A stretch of 62,533 bases of DNA from a virus, in the IMG/VR virus record IMGVR_UViG_3300036861_000520, positions 1-62,533 of that record; one strand, 5' to 3'. The notes beneath the pieces were generated by a model, which was given only the letters and a program-made list of their open reading frames with translations, was not told the origin of the DNA and did not search any database. Shown one piece after another: positions 7,725-59,500 of this stretch (position 1 is the stretch's first letter; every line of letters starts with the position of its first letter). Both the position numbers and the translations under genes were made by a program.

Positions 7725-8325
7725 CACGCACGATCTCCATCAGGCGCGCCAGAATGACGATCATCTGCGCCTCGGTCATCACCATATCCGCCCGCTGGAG
7801 CGCCGCCGCCGCCTTACTCGCCAGTTCGGACCTGGACTTCGCGGCCCCGAGCACTTCCTGCCAGGCGGCGACCCGCTCCCCGCCTTCCTGAATCAGGCGC
7901 TCCATCTCACTCACGCCAGCCAGGACCCGCTTTCCATCTTGCGCATCCCACCCGGCCCGCACCGCCACGCCCGCCTCTGCCAGCGACTTGAGCCAGGCCG
8001 TTGAGAAGCCGCCCGCCAGCAGGTCTTTCCGCTCCAACAAGAACTGATCGAAAAGCGCAATCTCGGGTTCCGACTTCAGGATGTCTGGGTCTTCAACCAG
8101 CTCCCGGAACCGGTCGCCGAAGGTGGCGATGTAAGCCGAAACGCGCGTTCTCCCAGGCTTCGGGATTCCTCCCGGATGGACCGGACCGGGATTGTTCCCG
8201 CCGTGCTTATAGCACACTCGCTTACCATGCATAGCCCAGCGGCGGCAGGGACGGCCGTCAGTGCAGTGCCCCTGACACTTGATCGGAGCCGCAGGAGTGG
8301 ATACCGGCCCGCGTGCCTTACCCAC
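7606..8325 (-). CDS. terminase small subunit (putative)
   Basis: 239 residues with a GTG start at 8325, preceded by GGGGG at good spacing and overlapping the PLD-like gene by 8 bases; GTG 8331 is an alternative. The N-terminus holds a zinc-knuckle-like CQGHCTDGRPC...CYKHGG pattern followed by a Pro/Gly-rich linker, an arrangement common in phage small terminases. The rest is helical (FDQFLLERKDLLAGG, ELASKAAAALQRADMVMTEA). It would recognise the packaging site and load the large subunit. Assignment rests on position directly before terL and on the HGGNNPG motif. Confidence 0.75.
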   Translation of the reverse strand: MGKARGPVSTPAAPIKCQGHCTDGRPCRRWAMHGKRVCYKHGGNNPGPVHPGGIPKPGRTRVSAYIATFGDRFRELVEDPDILKSEPEIALFDQFLLERKDLLAGGFSTAWLKSLAEAGVAVRAGWDAQDGKRVLAGVSEMERLIQEGGERVAAWQEVLGAAKSRSELASKAAAALQRADMVMTEAQMIVILARLMEIVRDVAGDQAAYAVGSRFERETLRGVVPGQGAINPSVPPATN

Positions 8326-8956
8326 GCGCACCCCCAAACAGCCAGCCCAGGTCGTCTTCCCCACCGAGCGTCGGTTGGGCCGCGCCGAACTGGTAACCCG
8401 GCGCACCCTGCTGCCAGATGCGGTCGAAGAGGTTGGCGAAGAACGCCGCGACGTTGGCGCTCTCGTCCAGGTCGAAAAGCTCCATCCCGATCCCCCCAAC
8501 GAGGTTGAAGGTGCCGCGCACCGTGACCGCCCACCGCTCGTTGGTCACTACGACCACCTTCATGTGCGTTTTCGTGGTCCGGACCGCTTCGGCTCCGAGC
8601 CAATTGAGCACGAGCCGCGCCGCGTCCGGTGCCACGCCGGGGAAGCTCTCATCCGTCAGGAGCCGCAGGCTGCGAATGTCGCCGAGGCGCGTCAGTTCGC
8701 GCAGCTTCTCCACCGCCACCGGGTGCATTCTCCAGGTCGAGAGCAGCACCGAGGCCGGTCCGGTCTGGGCGAGGATCGCTTCGAGCGTGTCCCCGATGCC
8801 GAATTGGCCGGCGTTGACGCCGGTGATGTGGACGCCCGGCGTGAGCAGCCCGAATGCCTGCCGCGCGGTCTTTCTGGCCGTGCGGACTGTGCGCGAAGCT
8901 TCCCAACCGCCGACGCGCCGCAGTGGCCGGATGTCCGCCAGTGATCCTGGTCTCAT
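8318..8956 (-). CDS. PLD-like domain protein B
   Basis: 212 residues and clearly paralogous to its upstream neighbour (8953-9690). Both share AGQ, LEA.LA.TGPA, LS.WRM, LRLL.D, W.GAEA.R.TKTH.KV, RG.FNL and DLDE. The THMKVVVVTN and GTFNL segments resemble the HxK and G(S/T)xN parts of a phospholipase D/nuclease active site. The usual Asp of HxK(x4)D is Thr here. One PLD motif per chain is normal for enzymes that dimerise to build the active site. Sits four bases from the neighbour (ATGA) and just before terS. Function in packaging or host DNA processing is inference. Confidence 0.7.
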   Translation of the reverse strand: MRPGSLADIRPLRRVGGWEASRTVRTARKTARQAFGLLTPGVHITGVNAGQFGIGDTLEAILAQTGPASVLLSTWRMHPVAVEKLRELTRLGDIRSLRLLTDESFPGVAPDAARLVLNWLGAEAVRTTKTHMKVVVVTNERWAVTVRGTFNLVGGIGMELFDLDESANVAAFFANLFDRIWQQGAPGYQFGAAQPTLGGEDDLGWLFGGARG

Positions 8957-9690
8957 TCCGCGCCCCCCTCGAAGAGCCAGGACAGGTTATCGTGCGGCCC
9001 GGCCTGCGGTTCCACCGCTGCCAGTGGCTCGCCGAAGATGTCGGACAGGAGCGCGCGGTCCGTCTCGCTCACCTCATCGATCCAGCCGCGCTTCATCGTG
9101 CGGTTCGCCTCACCGCTGCCGACGAAAAAGCCCGGCTCCGCGACGCGCCAGAGGCGGTCGAAGGTCTCGTGGAAGAACGCGCAAAGCTCCGGCCCCTCGT
9201 CCAGGTCCCAGTTCTCAATGCCAAGTGTCAGGTTGAGGTTGAAGCTTCCCCGGATCACCACCTGCCAGCGGTCGTTGGTGATGACCGCCACCTTAAGGTG
9301 AGTCTTCGTCAACCGAATAGCCTCGGCGCCGAACCAGCCCTGGATCTGACGCGCGTAATGCGGCTTGAAGCGCGGGTATGCCCGGTCGATCAGCAGCCGC
9401 AGGTCCCGGACCGTGCCGGCCGCCTTCAGGTCCCGAAGCAACTCCGCCTCGAGGATCCCCATCCGCCACACGGATAAGGCGAGGTTCGCCGGTCCGGTCA
9501 GCGCGAGGACCGCTTCGAGGCAGTTCCAGAGCGAGTATTGCCCTGCGCTGATACCCGTCAGGTGGAGGCCCGGCTCCAACTCGCCGATGTGGGCTGCCGC
9601 GAGCGACGTCGCCGCCTTCACCCGCGCCGGCTTGCCGCCCCAGGTGGACTTGCGCTTGCGGGTGGCAGGATGGACCGTTGCGAGGATCAT
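8953..9690 (-). CDS. PLD-like domain protein A
   Basis: 245 residues, paralogue of the following gene. Basic N-terminus (MILATVHPATRKRKSTWGGK), then the shared core GLHLTGISAGQYSLWNCLEA, the PLD-like THLKVAVITN and RGSFNLN motifs near residues 130-155, and a C-terminal extension of about 40 residues absent from the paralogue (GSGEANRTMKRGWIDEVSE). Both end with LFEGGA/LFGGARG. His and Lys of HxK are conserved, the Asp is replaced by Thr. A tandem duplication with divergence is clear; biochemical activity is not. Confidence 0.7.
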   Translation of the reverse strand: MILATVHPATRKRKSTWGGKPARVKAATSLAAAHIGELEPGLHLTGISAGQYSLWNCLEAVLALTGPANLALSVWRMGILEAELLRDLKAAGTVRDLRLLIDRAYPRFKPHYARQIQGWFGAEAIRLTKTHLKVAVITNDRWQVVIRGSFNLNLTLGIENWDLDEGPELCAFFHETFDRLWRVAEPGFFVGSGEANRTMKRGWIDEVSETDRALLSDIFGEPLAAVEPQAGPHDNLSWLFEGGAE

Positions 9691-10354: not shown

Positions 10355-10864
10355 ATGGTATCACCGATCACCGGCCGCAGGCTCGATCTGGAACTGACGG
10401 TGCCGACTGCTGCGAGGCGCGCGGCTTACGTCCCCATCTTCCGCTGCTCGCTGGTCCGCGACGGACGCCAGCAGGTGGATGAGAAGGTCATCCGGTCGCC
10501 GGCCGACGTGGCCCCGATCCTCATCGACTACCTCGCCGGGACCGACCGCGAGATGATGGTCGTCGTGCTGGTGGACGCCCGCAACAAGGTCATCGGACTG
10601 AACACGGTCTCGGTGGGAACGCTCACCGAGTCCCTGGTTCACCCCCGCGAGGTATTCAAGCCGGCGATCCTGGCGAACGCCGCGGCCGTCATCCTGGGTC
10701 ACAACCACCCGAGCGGCGACCCGGAGCCGTCGCCCCAGGACATCGCCACCACGCGGCGCCTGATGGAAGCCGGGAAAGCACTGGGCATCGACGTGCTGGA
10801 CCACGTCATCATCGGTGACGGAACCGGCCGCTGGTACAGCCTGAAGCAGTCGGGGATGATGTAG
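10355..10864 (+). CDS. RadC-like JAB/MPN-domain protein
   Basis: 169 residues, starting after GACGAGGAG. The JAB/MPN metal-binding signature is visible: Glu in TLTESLVHPREVF, then GHNHPSGDPEPSPQD near residues 121-136 (HxHPxGxxxPSxxD), as in RadC/UPF0758 proteins and phage or plasmid homologues. The N-terminal helix-hairpin-helix of chromosomal RadC is absent. JAB domains are zinc hydrolases (deubiquitinase-like fold); the RadC substrate is unknown, and phage or mobile-element copies are often called anti-restriction or DNA-repair related without proof. Confidence 0.9.
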   Translation: MVSPITGRRLDLELTVPTAARRAAYVPIFRCSLVRDGRQQVDEKVIRSPADVAPILIDYLAGTDREMMVVVLVDARNKVIGLNTVSVGTLTESLVHPREVFKPAILANAAAVILGHNHPSGDPEPSPQDIATTRRLMEAGKALGIDVLDHVIIGDGTGRWYSLKQSGMM

Positions 10865-24133: not shown

Positions 24134-24152
24134 ATCGACAAGCTTTGGCGCA

Positions 24153-24246
24153 GGAGGTGACCTCTCCCGCGCCGATGGCAGTGTCCCGTAAAGGCACTAC
24201 CCGAAGCGCCCGCCCGTGGAGAGGTCACCTCCGCAGGCGGGCGTTT
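24153..24246 (+). ncRNA. structured RNA element 1 (A-B-A'-B' inverted repeats)
   Basis: Arm A GGAGGTGACCTCTCC (24153-24167) is perfectly complementary to A' (24218-24232). Arm B CGCCCGCC (24207-24214) is perfectly complementary to B' GGCGGGCG (24236-24243), followed by TTT. The order A-B-A'-B' allows a pseudoknot, or a switch in which A:A' competes with the terminator-like B:B' hairpin whose loop is A'. A second element with the same plan lies at 25297-25384. A contains a full Shine-Dalgarno core (GGAGGTGA). The element precedes the gene at 24264. Confidence 0.7.
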
Positions 24247-24263
24247 CCCGTCAGGAGACCACG

Positions 24264-24494
24264 ATGGCGCAGGTTAAGACCATCTGCATCACGGTCGGAC
24301 GCAAGATGTGCGACAAGGTGAATATGGACATCCGCACCCGCGAATATGGATTGTCGGCAACCCTGGAAGTGGCCGACGGCGAGGACGTGCGACAGGTCCT
24401 CTCTGCCTGGACGCCGCGACTTCAGGGCGTATGCGACGCGGCGGTAGGCGACTTCGGCCCCTACTCATTCCGCGAGCGCTGCAAGACGGATTGA
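24264..24494 (+). CDS. hypothetical protein behind RNA element 1
   Basis: 76 residues from ATG 24264, with AGGAGACCACG upstream. VKTICITVGRKMCDKVNMDI and GLSATLEVADGEDVRQVL suggest an alpha/beta fold. A similar length and IC.TVGRK.. style is seen in small phage proteins next to single-strand-binding genes, but I cannot name a family. Confidence 0.65.
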   Translation: MAQVKTICITVGRKMCDKVNMDIRTREYGLSATLEVADGEDVRQVLSAWTPRLQGVCDAAVGDFGPYSFRERCKTD

Positions 24495-24596
24495 AAGACT
24501 TCGGGTAGGGAACGGCGCGCCCTGCCCGATTGACACACACGACGGCGCCAATGACAGGGGCGATGGTCTGCGGACCCGGCCCCGGAGAACACGCAA

Positions 24597-25211
24597 ATGG
24601 CTGGATGGGGTGGTGGTGGCGGGGGACTAGACCTCCCGCAGCGCGCGGAACCCTACACCGCGCAGGTGACTGATTGGGCGCAGGTAGAAGGCAAGGCCTT
24701 CCAGGACAAGCCCAACCCGGGGCCGCGGTTCAAGTTCTCGGTAGACGTGTGGATGGGCAACGCCTGGCAGCGGAAAACCATCTTCACCGGGACGAACTTC
24801 TGCGATCCGAACCAGGTCTCGGCCGCGAGCTTCATCCCGAAGCTGGTCAAGCTGGTCCGCGCCTGTGATATGCCCCTGCCGATGGACGCGCAGCAGGCCG
24901 CGGCCTGGACCGCCGACTGTCTGATCGGTAAGCGGTTCGGGATCCTGATGAGCCCGGACCCGGAAACCGGGAAGGTGGAACCGCGGTTCGTGCGACTGGC
25001 CCAGGCGCCGGTGTTGCCGCGGCCACCGGAGCGGCCGGCGCCTGCGGCACCACCCGCGCAGCAGTTCCAGCCACCGGCGCCGACGCCCGCACCGCCACAG
25101 TACGCGCCGCCGCCCGACGATCCCTTCGTCGAAGAAGGACCGCCGCTGACCCCGGACGGGACCTACGCCACGGCGCCGGCCGTCACTGGCCCCGTGGACG
25201 CCTGGAAGTAG
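24597..25211 (+). CDS. putative single-stranded DNA-binding protein
   Basis: 204 residues. An N-terminal OB-fold-like domain (about residues 18-135; FKFSVDVWMGNAWQRKTIF, RFGILMSPDPETGKVEPRF) is followed by a long Pro/Ala/Gln-rich linker and an acidic patch PPPDDPFVEEGPP, as in phage SSBs where the acidic tail contacts replication partners. The acidic patch is not at the very end. Lies just before the primase and helicase genes. Inferred from architecture and context. Confidence 0.6.
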   Translation: MAGWGGGGGGLDLPQRAEPYTAQVTDWAQVEGKAFQDKPNPGPRFKFSVDVWMGNAWQRKTIFTGTNFCDPNQVSAASFIPKLVKLVRACDMPLPMDAQQAAAWTADCLIGKRFGILMSPDPETGKVEPRFVRLAQAPVLPRPPERPAPAAPPAQQFQPPAPTPAPPQYAPPPDDPFVEEGPPLTPDGTYATAPAVTGPVDAWK

Positions 25212-25267
25212 TGTTCCACCAGGCCGACCACACTAGATAAGGGACTGCTACCAGCGACCTGATGCGG

Positions 25268-25273
25268 TAAAAT
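25268..25273 (+). promoter_or_regulatory. possible -10 box before RNA element 2
   Basis: TAAAAT stands out in a GC-rich stretch; the -35 at 17-base spacing (CTGCTA) is weak. A transcript from here would begin near 25280, so that RNA element 2 would form its 5' end. Confidence 0.4.
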
Positions 25274-25296
25274 TACTCACACCATCTTGCTCGCTG

Positions 25297-25384
25297 GGAG
25301 ACTTCACCTCCGAGCAGCTCCCACGGTGCCCCGCGCACTACAGACGCCCGTCCCCGGAGGTGAAGTCTCCTGGGACGGGCGTTT
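25297..25384 (+). ncRNA. structured RNA element 2, leader of primase gene
   Basis: Arm A GGAGACTTCACCTCC (25297-25311) pairs perfectly with A' GGAGGTGAAGTCTCC (25356-25370). Arm B ACGCCCGTCCC (25344-25354) pairs perfectly with B' GGGACGGGCGT (25372-25382), followed by TTTGTT. Same order A-B-A'-B' as at 24153-24246, and the shared words GCACTAC and GGGCGTTT keep their places although the arm sequences differ, which looks like compensatory change. B:B' resembles an intrinsic terminator; A:A' would prevent or knot it. Ends 11 bases before the primase ATG. Confidence 0.75.
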
Positions 25385-25394
25385 GTTATCACCT

Positions 25395-27347
25395 ATGCCA
25401 AACCCAGAACCCGACCTCGGCCAACTGGAACAGGCCGCCGCTCTGCTACTCCCGCCCGGCCAGGTCCTCGAGCTCCGCGTTATTGGGAGCCACCGCGGGA
25501 CCGTCAGCGGCTACTACGACGATCCGGCCGCCCTGGTGCGAGACGCCGCCCTCTGGAGCGGGAAGGCCGGCGGGATCTACGTCACCCCGAACCCGGTCCG
25601 GCCGGACCTGCTCGCCCGCAGTTGTAACCGCGCCACAGAATTCGCCCGGCATACCACCAAGGCGGATGACATCCTCGCCCGCCGCTGGCTCCTGATCGAC
25701 TTCGACGCGAAACGCCCGGCGGGTATCTCGGCCAGTGAAGCGGAACACCGCGCCGCCCTGACCCGGGCCGCGGAATGTGCGACCTGGCTGATCGAGCGGC
25801 AGTGGCCTCCGGTGCTCTACGCGGACAGCGGGAACGGAGCGCACCTGCTCGCCCGTGTGGATCTGCCCAACGACCCGGAAACGCACAGCCTCTTCGAGCG
25901 CTGCCTGAACGCGCTCGCGGCCCAGTGGGATACGCCGGAAGTGTCGGTCGATCCGACCACGAAGGACGCCTCGCGAGTGTGGAAATTCTACGGGACAGCG
26001 GTTTGCAAGGGCGACAGCATCCCAACCCGGCCGCACCGGATCGCCCGCATCCTGCAAGCCGAGGGACTGGCCCCGGTGCCGCGGGCGCTATTGGAAGATC
26101 TCGCCGCACTGGTTCCAGTCGCTGCCGTCCGCACTGTTGGGAATGGCGCTTCCAATAGTAAAGCGCCGCTGGCGACTGGCTCTCGCGGCGATTATTCCTC
26201 GTTGGATGCTGTGGCCTGGTTCGGCGCCCACGGAGCTTACGGCAGGCCGCTGGCTAACGGCGCGCATGCAGTGCTGTGCCCCTGGGCCGGCGAGCATTCC
26301 GACCATCGACCCGCCGAGGACTCGGATACCGTCGTCTGGCCGGCGCAGGGTGAGGTCTGGCCGACCTTCCACTGCTCGCACGCCCATTGCGCGCAGAGGA
26401 CCCTGAAGGACGTTCTAGCCTTCTGGGGAGACGCCGACCGGTTCTGCTCCCTTTCGTTCACCAGTGCCCCGCGTTGGCCCGTGTCGGCGTCCCCTGCGGT
26501 ATTTCAGGACACTGCCCCGGTTAGCGGACGGATCGAAGAGCAGAGCCGACAGCACGCTCTGTTGACGCAGGCTGGTGCGCTGCGCCGAACCGGCCTGGAG
26601 CCGGCCGCGATTGAAGCCGCCCTCCAGGTGGTCAACGCGGAACGCTGCGAGCCGCCGCTACCCGTCGATGCCGTGGCAGAGATAGCTGCCCAGGTTGGCC
26701 GCTACGAACCGGCCGAGGCCCAGGACTGGCGGGTCGGCGCCGCTGGGGTCGCGACGTTCACCGGATTAGACCCGCTCATTCGGATCGGATCGACACCGCC
26801 ACGCTATAAGGCCACAGTGCGCGGCAGAGTGATCGAACTCTCTGGGAAGGAGATGGCCGAATGGCGGCTGTTCAAATTCCGATGCATCACCGAAATGGGC
26901 TGCGTGCTGGAGTTGCCTTCAAATCCGATACAGGAGAAGGTCCCGCTACAAATCCGTTGGGAGCGTGAGTTCATCGGGCCTGCGTTGGAGCGAATGAACC
27001 GCTTGGGGCAGTTCGAGGAAGCCCCGGAAGACGCCGGAGAACCAGGCGCAGCCTGGCAGAGTATCCTGCGCTGGTTTGAGAACATCAAGCCGGATGCGAC
27101 CATTGAGGACGTTGCGGCTGGCAGGGCTGCCAGGATCGATGACCACTACGTGTTCAAGGGAGAGTCGCTCCGGCACTGGATGCAGGCTAACCGGGTGGAC
27201 AAGCTCCCACCCGATCAAATCTGGCACGTCGTCAGAGCCCACGGCGGGAAACCGCAAACCCACCGGATAGGGCGAGGCACCGTCTTTGCCTGGCGGGTGC
27301 CGGTGCCCGGAACCGGTGCTGATTGTGTGGTGAGTGTGCCGGAATAA
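25395..27347 (+). CDS. primase-polymerase (archaeo-eukaryotic type) with PriCT region
   Basis: 650 residues from ATG 25395. AEP primase core: metal motif LLIDFDAKRPAGIS (DxD near 102-104), nucleotide-site DSGNGAHLLARVD near 145-157, and DPTTKDASRVWKFYGT near 186-201. A zinc-ribbon-like part follows (LCPWAGEHSDH ... FHCSHAHC), then a PriCT-like helical region (NAERCEPPLPVDAVAEIA) and a C-terminal domain of unknown type. It probably primes, and may extend, phage DNA synthesis. No helicase domain is fused. No Shine-Dalgarno next to the ATG; the nearest GGAGGTGA is in arm A' of the leader element. Confidence 0.88.
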   Translation: MPNPEPDLGQLEQAAALLLPPGQVLELRVIGSHRGTVSGYYDDPAALVRDAALWSGKAGGIYVTPNPVRPDLLARSCNRATEFARHTTKADDILARRWLLIDFDAKRPAGISASEAEHRAALTRAAECATWLIERQWPPVLYADSGNGAHLLARVDLPNDPETHSLFERCLNALAAQWDTPEVSVDPTTKDASRVWKFYGTAVCKGDSIPTRPHRIARILQAEGLAPVPRALLEDLAALVPVAAVRTVGNGASNSKAPLATGSRGDYSSLDAVAWFGAHGAYGRPLANGAHAVLCPWAGEHSDHRPAEDSDTVVWPAQGEVWPTFHCSHAHCAQRTLKDVLAFWGDADRFCSLSFTSAPRWPVSASPAVFQDTAPVSGRIEEQSRQHALLTQAGALRRTGLEPAAIEAALQVVNAERCEPPLPVDAVAEIAAQVGRYEPAEAQDWRVGAAGVATFTGLDPLIRIGSTPPRYKATVRGRVIELSGKEMAEWRLFKFRCITEMGCVLELPSNPIQEKVPLQIRWEREFIGPALERMNRLGQFEEAPEDAGEPGAAWQSILRWFENIKPDATIEDVAAGRAARIDDHYVFKGESLRHWMQANRVDKLPPDQIWHVVRAHGGKPQTHRIGRGTVFAWRVPVPGTGADCVVSVPE

Positions 27348-39347: not shown

Positions 39348-39580
39348 CGAGGCTGGAGAAGGCGGCGCGCGAAGTGTTGGAAGCTTTCCACGGGATGGCT
39401 AGCCTGGACGAGAGTATGTTCGAACTCGGGGAGGCGCTGGGGGATGCCATTACGACCGATCCAGCGCTGTGCGGCGCGGTGTCCCCGACAGGCATCCCGT
39501 GCATCCGTCCGGCGGGGCACGGTGAGCACCACGCCAACAGCGGCGCGATGTGGTGGGATTCGAAGGAGCCGACCGAATGA
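39344..39580 (+). CDS. small zinc-knuckle protein
   Basis: 78 residues from ATG 39344. C-terminal CGAVSPTGIPCIRPAGHGEH has the C...TxxGxPC...HxxH pattern widespread in small phage and actinobacterial proteins. Helical N-terminus. Unknown. Confidence 0.6.
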   Translation: MTRLEKAAREVLEAFHGMASLDESMFELGEALGDAITTDPALCGAVSPTGIPCIRPAGHGEHHANSGAMWWDSKEPTE

Positions 39581-40494
39581 AGCATATCGTCGGGTTCTCT
39601 GGCGGTTGTGACAGCCAGGCCTGCGCCCTGTGGGTGCGGCAGCGGGTCCCGGCGGAAGACATCATCCTGCTCAATTCCGAGGCGGGCCGGAACGAGCATC
39701 CAATCACCGTTCAGTTCGTGAAGTGGTATTCCGAGAACATCTTTCCGGTGGTTCAGGTCGTGCCACTGATCAAGGACCTGGGCAACCGTGGCACGATGCC
39801 GGGGGCGACCCGAGATCGGCGGCGGGAGTTCAGCGATGACGATGAGCTGACCTTCGACCGGCTGGCTTACGTGAAGGGAATATTCCCTTCACGTAAGGCG
39901 CAGTTCTGCACCGAGAGCCTCAAGATGGCTCCGCAGAAGCGGTGGACAGAAGAGAACCTGCCTGACGGAGACTTCGAGCGGTATACCGGCGTGCGGTGGC
40001 AGGAAGGCGAACGTGGCGGGTGTTCGGTGGCGCTTCCAGTGATCGCAGCAGGAGGACGCCGACCACGCGGGCGGCTGCACACGCCAGAGCGGGAATGGGA
40101 TGACTACTTCGATTGCTACGTCAACCATCCACTGGCATCCTGGACGAAAGCCGAGGTGTTTGCGTTCCTGAAGGAGCACGGCGAGCCGGTGAACCCACTC
40201 TACACACACGGGTTCTCTCGGGTGGGCTGCGCCCCCTGCATCAACAGCGGCAAAGAGGATATCCGTCTGTGGGCTGCCCGGTTCCCGGAGATGATCGACA
40301 AGCTTCGCCAGTGGGAGAAACAGAACGGACGCACGTTCTTTGCACCCTGCGTGCCCGGCTATGTGATCAATTGGGTTGACGAGGTGGTGGCGTGGAGCCG
40401 CACGAGCCGAGGTGGGAAGCAGTTTGACCTCCCGATGGTCGAGGCCGACGCTGCCGATGGAGCCTGTTCCAGCAGGTATGGGCTATGTGAGTGA
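39577..40494 (+). CDS. PP-loop (PAPS-reductase-like) protein 2
   Basis: 305 residues from ATG 39577. Canonical PP-loop VGFSGGCDSQACALW (5-19), then GIFPSRKAQFCTESLK, a second Cys cluster RVGCAPCINSGKEDIR near 224-239, and a FAPCVPGY end. Phage members of this family resemble phosphoadenosine-phosphosulfate reductase and DndC. They may activate or sulfurate a substrate; activity here is inferred. A perfect 32-bp palindrome lies inside the gene at 39866-39897 without breaking the frame. Confidence 0.85.
   Translation: MKHIVGFSGGCDSQACALWVRQRVPAEDIILLNSEAGRNEHPITVQFVKWYSENIFPVVQVVPLIKDLGNRGTMPGATRDRRREFSDDDELTFDRLAYVKGIFPSRKAQFCTESLKMAPQKRWTEENLPDGDFERYTGVRWQEGERGGCSVALPVIAAGGRRPRGRLHTPEREWDDYFDCYVNHPLASWTKAEVFAFLKEHGEPVNPLYTHGFSRVGCAPCINSGKEDIRLWAARFPEMIDKLRQWEKQNGRTFFAPCVPGYVINWVDEVVAWSRTSRGGKQFDLPMVEADAADGACSSRYGLCE
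39866..39897. repeat. perfect 32-bp palindrome inside PP-loop gene 2
   Basis: The 16-base half CTTACGTGAAGGGAAT is followed immediately by its exact reverse complement. It encodes part of LAYVKGIFPSRKAQF, which agrees with the family consensus, so it is not an obvious insertion. With no spacer it would form a cruciform or tight hairpin. Confidence 0.9.
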
Positions 40495-59435: not shown

Positions 59436-59469
59436 AAAAAGGCCAGGCACCCATAAGGGCACCCGGCCT
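59436..59469 (-). terminator. strand-specific intrinsic terminator before protease gene
   Basis: On the minus strand a 13-bp stem (arms 59469-59457 and 59452-59440) closes a UUAU loop and is followed by UUUUU. Three pairs are G-U wobbles, which would be A-C mismatches in a plus-strand RNA, so the structure works only in the late direction. It ends 17 bases before the protease ATG. Confidence 0.85.
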
Positions 59470-59500
59470 GCCGTTCGACGGCTCAGACGGTTCTAGATCC

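What the first reader, a model, noticed from the sequence alone, without database searches (positions are those of the whole stretch)
24153..25384. Two copies of an A-B-A'-B' structured element, one leading the primase gene
Seen directly: at 24153-24246 and 25297-25384 two pairs of perfect inverted repeats interleave (15-bp A:A' plus 8- and 11-bp B:B'). The arm sequences differ between copies while pairing, order and the shared words GCACTAC and GGGCGTTT are kept, so pairing seems to be conserved rather than sequence. B:B' looks like an intrinsic terminator whose loop is A'; pairing of A with A' would knot or abolish it. One arm in each copy carries the full Shine-Dalgarno core GGAGGTGA and the other its complement CACCTCC, the same word as the 16S rRNA 3' end. 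Hypothesis: a phage riboregulator (attenuator or ribosome-sensing switch) controlling replication genes, or a pair of small RNAs. I know no described element with this plan, but I could not search.
Basis: partly seen in the sequence, partly recalled or inferred. Interest (0 to 1): 0.85.

Follow-up and report, generated by a model that had tools for sequence, protein, structure and literature searches.

The report
Paired phage RNA switch before primase
A lone, unclassified phage carries, next to its DNA-primase gene, two copies of a folded RNA element whose parts can pair in two mutually exclusive ways; the copies differ in sequence but keep nearly all key pairings, which suggests an RNA on/off switch for the replication genes, though nothing has been tested in the laboratory.

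Summary
At 24153-24246 and 25297-25384 perfect inverted repeats A:A' (15 and 16 bp) and B:B' (8 and 11 bp) interleave. These are the only such places in the window, and none as strong occurred in 200 shuffles of it. Each A and each A' is itself a hairpin GGAG-N7-CTCC. Each copy is therefore hairpin H1 (A at its tip), a middle hairpin, and a long GC-rich hairpin H3 (A' at its tip), with the seven-base loops of H1 and H3 exactly complementary. Aligned in register, the copies show 12 pairs changed on both sides: 6 in the loop:loop helix, 4 in H1, 2 in H3. Computed energies describe an ordered switch: A:A' wins by about 15 kcal/mol once A' is transcribed, and H1+H3 wins by 8-11 once B' is out. Best reading: a cis-acting transcription attenuator. 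H3 is a weak terminator (short T-run), A:A' the antiterminator, H1 the anti-antiterminator; the signal is unknown. No relative was found in IMG/VR, GTDB genomes, phage records or Rfam, so covariation rests on two copies only. Rivals: antisense or small RNA, primase-recognised ssDNA hairpins, processing sites.

The parts
24145..24175 (+). Copy 1 H1: hairpin GGCGC-A-GGAG[GTGACCT]CTCC-C-GCGCC; contains arm A (24153-24167)
   Evidence: fold -18.7 kcal/mol; loop complementary to H3 loop
24153..24167 (+). Copy 1 arm A, GGAGGTGACCTCTCC (holds the SD word GGAGGTGA)
   Evidence: perfect inverted repeat with 24218-24232
24177..24202 (+). Copy 1 H2: middle hairpin GGcAGTGTC...GGCACTaCC
   Evidence: MFE fold; similarity to copy 2 not significant alone
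24203..24247 (+). Copy 1 H3: long GC-rich terminator-like hairpin, B 24207-24214, A' 24218-24232 at its tip, B' 24236-24243, then TTT
   Evidence: fold about -33 to -37 kcal/mol; in register with copy 2 H3
24264..24494 (+). Gene after copy 1: 76-aa protein of unknown function, AGGAG SD at 24254-24258
   Evidence: ORF; no family
25268..25273 (+). Possible -10 box TAAAAT upstream of copy 2 (weak -35 CTGCTA); would start an RNA just before H1
   Evidence: read from sequence; below the scan threshold
25289..25318 (+). Copy 2 H1: hairpin with tip GGAG[ACTTCAC]CTCC; contains arm A (25297-25312)
   Evidence: fold -15.2 kcal/mol; covariation with copy 1
25325..25339 (+). Copy 2 H2: middle hairpin GGTGC-CCCGC-GCACT
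   Evidence: MFE fold
25340..25386 (+). Copy 2 H3: long terminator-like hairpin, B 25344-25354, A' 25355-25370 at its tip (SD word GGAGGTGA), B' 25372-25382, then TTTGTT
   Evidence: fold -37.2 kcal/mol, z -7.2; strongest + strand hairpin of the window
25398..27347 (+). Primase gene (PriCT_1; archaeo-eukaryotic-type motifs WLLIDFD, DSGNGAHLL); no SD directly before its ATG
   Evidence: Pfam PF08708, alignment with phage primases, tblastn

Best explanation
Each copy is a cis-acting RNA attenuator in the untranslated stretch ahead of an early phage gene: the 76-aa ORF for copy 1, the primase for copy 2. Three helices compete. H1 is arm A folded on itself; A:A' is a 15-16 bp long-range helix; H3 is the GC-rich B-A'-B' hairpin that ends in a short T-run. 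As RNA polymerase makes A', the loop of H1 can kiss the loop of A' and zip into A:A', which keeps B from pairing with B' (antiterminator). If A stays in H1, or H1 is stabilised by a factor, the completed B' folds into H3 and stops transcription (terminator). Shown here: the anatomy, the mutual exclusion by energy, the order of preference during transcription, and conserved pairing between two diverged copies. Inferred: that it acts as RNA, that H3 terminates, and that the output is replication-gene expression. Unknown: the signal (phage protein, trans RNA or ribosome).
For: Interleaved perfect repeats, 2 observed and 0 in 200 shuffles. 12 pairs with changes on both sides between the copies: 4 in the outer stem of H1, 2 in H3, 6 of 7 in the loop:loop part of A:A'. 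G-U wobbles keep + strand pairing in H3 and H1 where the minus strand would have A-C, which favours + strand RNA. GGAG/CTCC is identical in all four hairpin tips, as a helix that must pair both with itself and with its partner would require. Energies: when A' ends, A:A' -45.3 against -30.3 (copy 1) and -38.7 against -24.3 (copy 2); at full length, H1+H2+H3 -63.6 against -52.6, and -58.3 against -50.7. The two H3 hairpins are the strongest + strand hairpins of the window. Both copies lie between genes, on the coding strand, just before a start codon.
Against: The T-run is short (TTTCCCGT; TTTGTTAT). No promoter reaches the scan threshold. Covariation comes from only two copies of one genome, and template-switch repair of imperfect inverted repeats can also keep arms matched. 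No homologue was found. No RNA data exist.
Confidence: 0.5

Rival explanations
1. Small or antisense RNAs: each copy makes a short structured RNA (about 100 nt) ended by H3, and loops act in trans by kissing, for example copy 1 RNA on the copy 2 leader, as P4 CI RNA does on the P4 replication operon.
For: Arm A of copy 1 is 13/15 complementary to arm A of copy 2 (-21.5 kcal/mol), A' to A' likewise (-22.1); cofolding chooses the A1:A2 pairing by about 2.4 kcal/mol. P4 stops its own replication genes by RNA pairing that causes premature termination (PMC4825925). Possible -10 box before copy 2.
Against: Self-pairing inside each copy is perfect and cross-pairing is not; no clear promoter at copy 1, whose H1 begins about 12 nt after a stop codon.
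Confidence: 0.17
2. Single-stranded DNA hairpins recognised by the phage primase (single-strand initiation sites), as ssiA/ssiB of RSF1010 are by RepB'.
For: Two copies close to a primase gene with archaeo-eukaryotic-type motifs. RSF1010 ssi sites are about 40 nt with a hairpin and a 3' GTG, read by such a primase (PMC4434180); a GTG follows H1 by about 7 nt in both copies.
Against: Does not explain why H1 and H3 loops must stay complementary, nor the T-run; GTG is a trivial word; both copies face the same way, whereas RSF1010 has one site per strand; the G-U wobbles favour RNA.
Confidence: 0.1
3. mRNA processing or stability hairpins (RNase III-type sites) between early genes, A:A' being a second double-stranded state.
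For: Long near-perfect stems with small internal loops, between genes in one operon.
Against: Such sites need no second, mutually exclusive helix conserved by double changes.
Confidence: 0.1
4. dsDNA operator: a protein binds a 15-bp site GGAGGTGANNTCTCC, present four times as inverted pairs.
For: All four sites share 13 of 15 positions when read in the matching orientation; a double helix explains the swapped orientation.
Against: No further site in the window beyond chance (27 matches with up to 3 mismatches, 25.7 expected); the two variable positions match within each copy; the sites lie exactly at hairpin tips with covarying flanking stems.
Confidence: 0.06
5. No function: chance, or repeats kept perfect by template-switch repair.
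For: No homologue anywhere searched.
Against: 2 observed against 0 in 200 shuffles; outer stems of H1 and H3 also covary.
Confidence: 0.07

Closest known systems
Three-hairpin transcription attenuators (trp-type leaders, terminator riboswitches)
   Same: Three overlapping helices: anti-antiterminator (H1), antiterminator (A:A'), terminator (H3), with the order of transcription deciding
   Different: No leader peptide, tRNA-binding or known ligand domain found; arms are self-complementary so that each is a hairpin tip; no Rfam match; phage gene context
Antisense-controlled attenuation of plasmid replication genes (pIP501, pT181 group)
   Same: A leader before a replication gene in which loop kissing decides between alternative folds; kissing can propagate into the stems (PMC4485353; pT181 from general knowledge)
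   Different: There the loops pair with a separate antisense RNA; here the partner loop is in the same RNA; no antisense promoter shown
Phage P4 CI RNA / P1 C4 antisense RNA immunity
   Same: A structured phage RNA next to replication genes that would act by base pairing and premature termination (PMC4825925)
   Different: No Rfam match; complementarity lies inside each element; two near-complete copies
RSF1010 ssiA/ssiB primase initiation sites
   Same: Two hairpin elements near the gene of a primase with archaeo-eukaryotic-type motifs (PMC4434180)
   Different: ssi are single hairpins of about 40 nt, one per strand, without loop:loop complementarity

Membership tests
Transcription attenuator | Mutually exclusive terminator and antiterminator helices | tested here: met
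   Energies and order of preference; computed, not measured
Transcription attenuator | Terminator: GC-rich hairpin followed at once by a U-tract | tested here: inconclusive
   Hairpin very strong; tract only TTTCCCGT and TTTGTTAT
Transcription attenuator | Measured change in read-through on a signal | not testable with these tools
   Needs in vitro transcription or reporter
Described RNA families (Rfam 15) | Covariance-model score above gathering cutoff | tested here: not met
   0 matches in the window; weak matches in the region are far below their cutoffs
P4 CI / C4 antisense RNA | Sequence-structure match to the family and separate seqA/seqC targets | tested here: not met
   No Rfam match; target sequences outside the element not sought beyond the other copy
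pIP501/pT181 attenuation | Antisense RNA from the opposite strand | tested here: inconclusive
   No sigma-70-like promoter above threshold on either strand, 22-30 kb; host promoters unknown
RSF1010-type ssi sites | Bound and primed by the cognate primase | not testable with these tools
   Hairpin and downstream GTG present, by reading only
DNA operator family | Further sites at other promoters of the phage | tested here: not met
   27 matches with up to 3 mismatches, 25.7 expected

The most novel reading that the evidence does not exclude
A self-kissing attenuator: an RNA switch class in which an upstream hairpin and the tip of a terminator carry identical stems and complementary loops, so that the two hairpins can zip into one long helix that cancels the terminator. 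A phage keeps two separately coded versions of it (different loop codes, possibly to avoid or permit cross-talk) to time its replication genes.
Probability: 0.3. Interest if true: 0.75.

Novelty: new variant of a known kind. Interest (0 to 1): 0.55.

Why it matters
If right, it is a nearly protein-free RNA switch plan in which the loop code can be changed while the logic stays: a natural attenuator in front of phage replication genes with two different codes in one genome. Phage early-gene control is known mostly from protein antiterminators and a few RNA cases (put, P4 CI; general knowledge and PMC4825925). Two copies with different codes make the pairing hypothesis directly testable by arm swaps.

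Tried and rejected
Relatives: the primase, terminase and capsid proteins gave no close relative in IMG/VR. A primase alignment gave 65 loci, the best 45% identical, but none carries the element in an interleaved-repeat scan or by reading the folds before 19 of these primases. The L074/L076/L077/L079 hits are repeated CTATCGGTAGAA motifs, not this plan. DNA patterns for H2+H3, for the paired GGAG-N7-CTCC tips and for H3 alone gave only chance matches or plain terminators. A descriptor search of 1.27 Mb for two hairpins with complementary loops found only these two copies (plus a complement and the same stretch held as L001) and one weak 6-base match. No Rfam family. H2 homology not significant. 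A constrained fold over-constrained the RNA and was discarded in favour. A covariance model was not built: MAFFT shifted H1 by one base and the middle by an indel, and only two sequences exist. Ribosome-sensing by the SD word was set aside because the word changes arm between copies.

Full report
WHAT IS THERE. The window is a 62,533-bp virus record of IMG/VR classed 'linear', a tailed phage by its terminase and replication genes. The early genes run on the + strand. In two gaps between early genes lie two copies of one element. Copy 1: A 24153-24167, B 24207-24214, A' 24218-24232, B' 24236-24243. Copy 2: A 25297-25312, B 25344-25354, A' 25355-25370, B' 25372-25382. All these pairings are perfect. 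Copy 1 is followed by a 76-aa ORF (ATG 24264, AGGAG before it). Copy 2 is followed by the primase gene (ATG 25398, no SD directly before it). Primase identity rests on PF08708, tblastn to phage primases/polymerases and an alignment keeping WLLIDFD and DSGNGAHLL.

CHANCE. With A>=13 and B>=8, the window has 2 interleaved places; 200 dinucleotide-preserving shuffles have none. Folding z-scores are -5.95 and -5.80. In a scan of all 50-nt stretches, the H3 hairpins of the two copies are the two strongest on the + strand. A descriptor search (two hairpins, complementary 6-8 nt loops, 35-95 nt apart) over 1.27 Mb of window and fetched loci found these two copies, a complement, the same stretch held as L001, and one weak match in L086.

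ANATOMY. Each arm is also a hairpin: all four are GGAG-N7-CTCC, and only two other such words exist in the window. So H1 = GGCGC.GGAG[GTGACCT]CTCC.GCGCC in copy 1 and GCT.GGAG[ACTTCAC]CTCC.AGC in copy 2; H3 = CGCCCG-N5-GGAG[loop]CTCC-N5-CGGGCGTTT in both, without gaps, loops AGGTCAC and GTGAAGT. The two loops of each copy are exact reverse complements. A small middle hairpin lies between; its shared word GCACTAC is not significant alone (742 of 5000 shuffles).

PAIRING IS CONSERVED, SEQUENCE IS NOT. Aligned in register: outer stem of H1, 4 of 5 pairs changed on both sides (1 broken in copy 2); A:A' loop section, 6 of 7 changed on both sides, 0 broken; H3, 2 changed on both sides, 2 one-sided through G-U, 2 broken in one copy each; GGAG/CTCC unchanged everywhere. 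The frozen GGAG/CTCC is what one expects if each arm must pair with itself and with its partner, since a change would need four substitutions. G-U wobbles occur in the + strand reading, which favours + strand RNA. Caveat: two copies of one genome, and template-switch repair can keep inverted repeats matched.

ENERGY AND ORDER. When A' has just been made, A:A' is preferred: -45.3 against -30.3 kcal/mol (copy 1) and -38.7 against -24.3 (copy 2). When B' is complete, H1+H2+H3 is preferred: -63.6 against -52.6, and -58.3 against -50.7. The linker between A' and B' (a few nt) is too short to span a 15-bp helix, so a full pseudoknot is unlikely and the states exclude each other (inference from geometry). 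This is the logic of an attenuator. The weak point is the short T-run.

THE SD WORD. GGAGGTGA/TCACCTCC is in A:A' of both copies, but the SD is in A in copy 1 and in A' in copy 2. It is not placed to serve a start codon (14 nt and 34 nt before the next ATG). In matching orientation the four sites share 13 of 15 bases, so recognition of the A:A' double helix by something, or cross-pairing between the copies (13/15, -21.5 kcal/mol), remains possible. This is unexplained.

RELATIVES. None with the element: see Tried and rejected. The phage is isolated in the held collections (capsid matches 24-28%; terminase below 47%).

VERDICT. A real, structured element conserved by pairing between its two copies, most likely a cis-acting attenuator of early replication genes (0.5), with antisense/small RNA, primase-recognised ssDNA and processing sites as rivals. 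It works like known attenuators; membership in any described RNA family was tested against Rfam and not met.

Noticed in passing
39867-39897: Perfect 30-bp palindrome TTACGTGAAGGGAATATTCCCTTCACGTAA inside a PAPS-reductase-like gene (39550-40494)
   Followed up: no
59440-59482, - strand: GC-rich hairpin followed by CTTTTTGC, a more classical intrinsic terminator than either H3; useful as a yardstick for this phage
   Followed up: no
8318-8956 and 8953-9690, - strand: Two adjacent genes whose products look like paralogues of each other
   Followed up: no
10355-10864: RadC-family gene in a phage
   Followed up: partly
L049, L050, L051, L054, L055: One sediment MAG (LacPavin_0920_SED3_MAG_51_16) carries at least five copies of a short element with long inverted ends, GGAGGGACACGCTCCGTCGTGTCC ... 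GGACGTGACGGAGCACGTCCCTCC, on different contigs, like a miniature mobile element
   Followed up: no
L074 5432-5560 (also L076, L077, L079): Repeated inverted motifs CTATCGGTAGAA upstream of a related primase gene; may be origin iterons
   Followed up: partly
25391-25396: TCACCT directly before the primase ATG is complementary to part of A' (AGGTGA); may be chance
   Followed up: no
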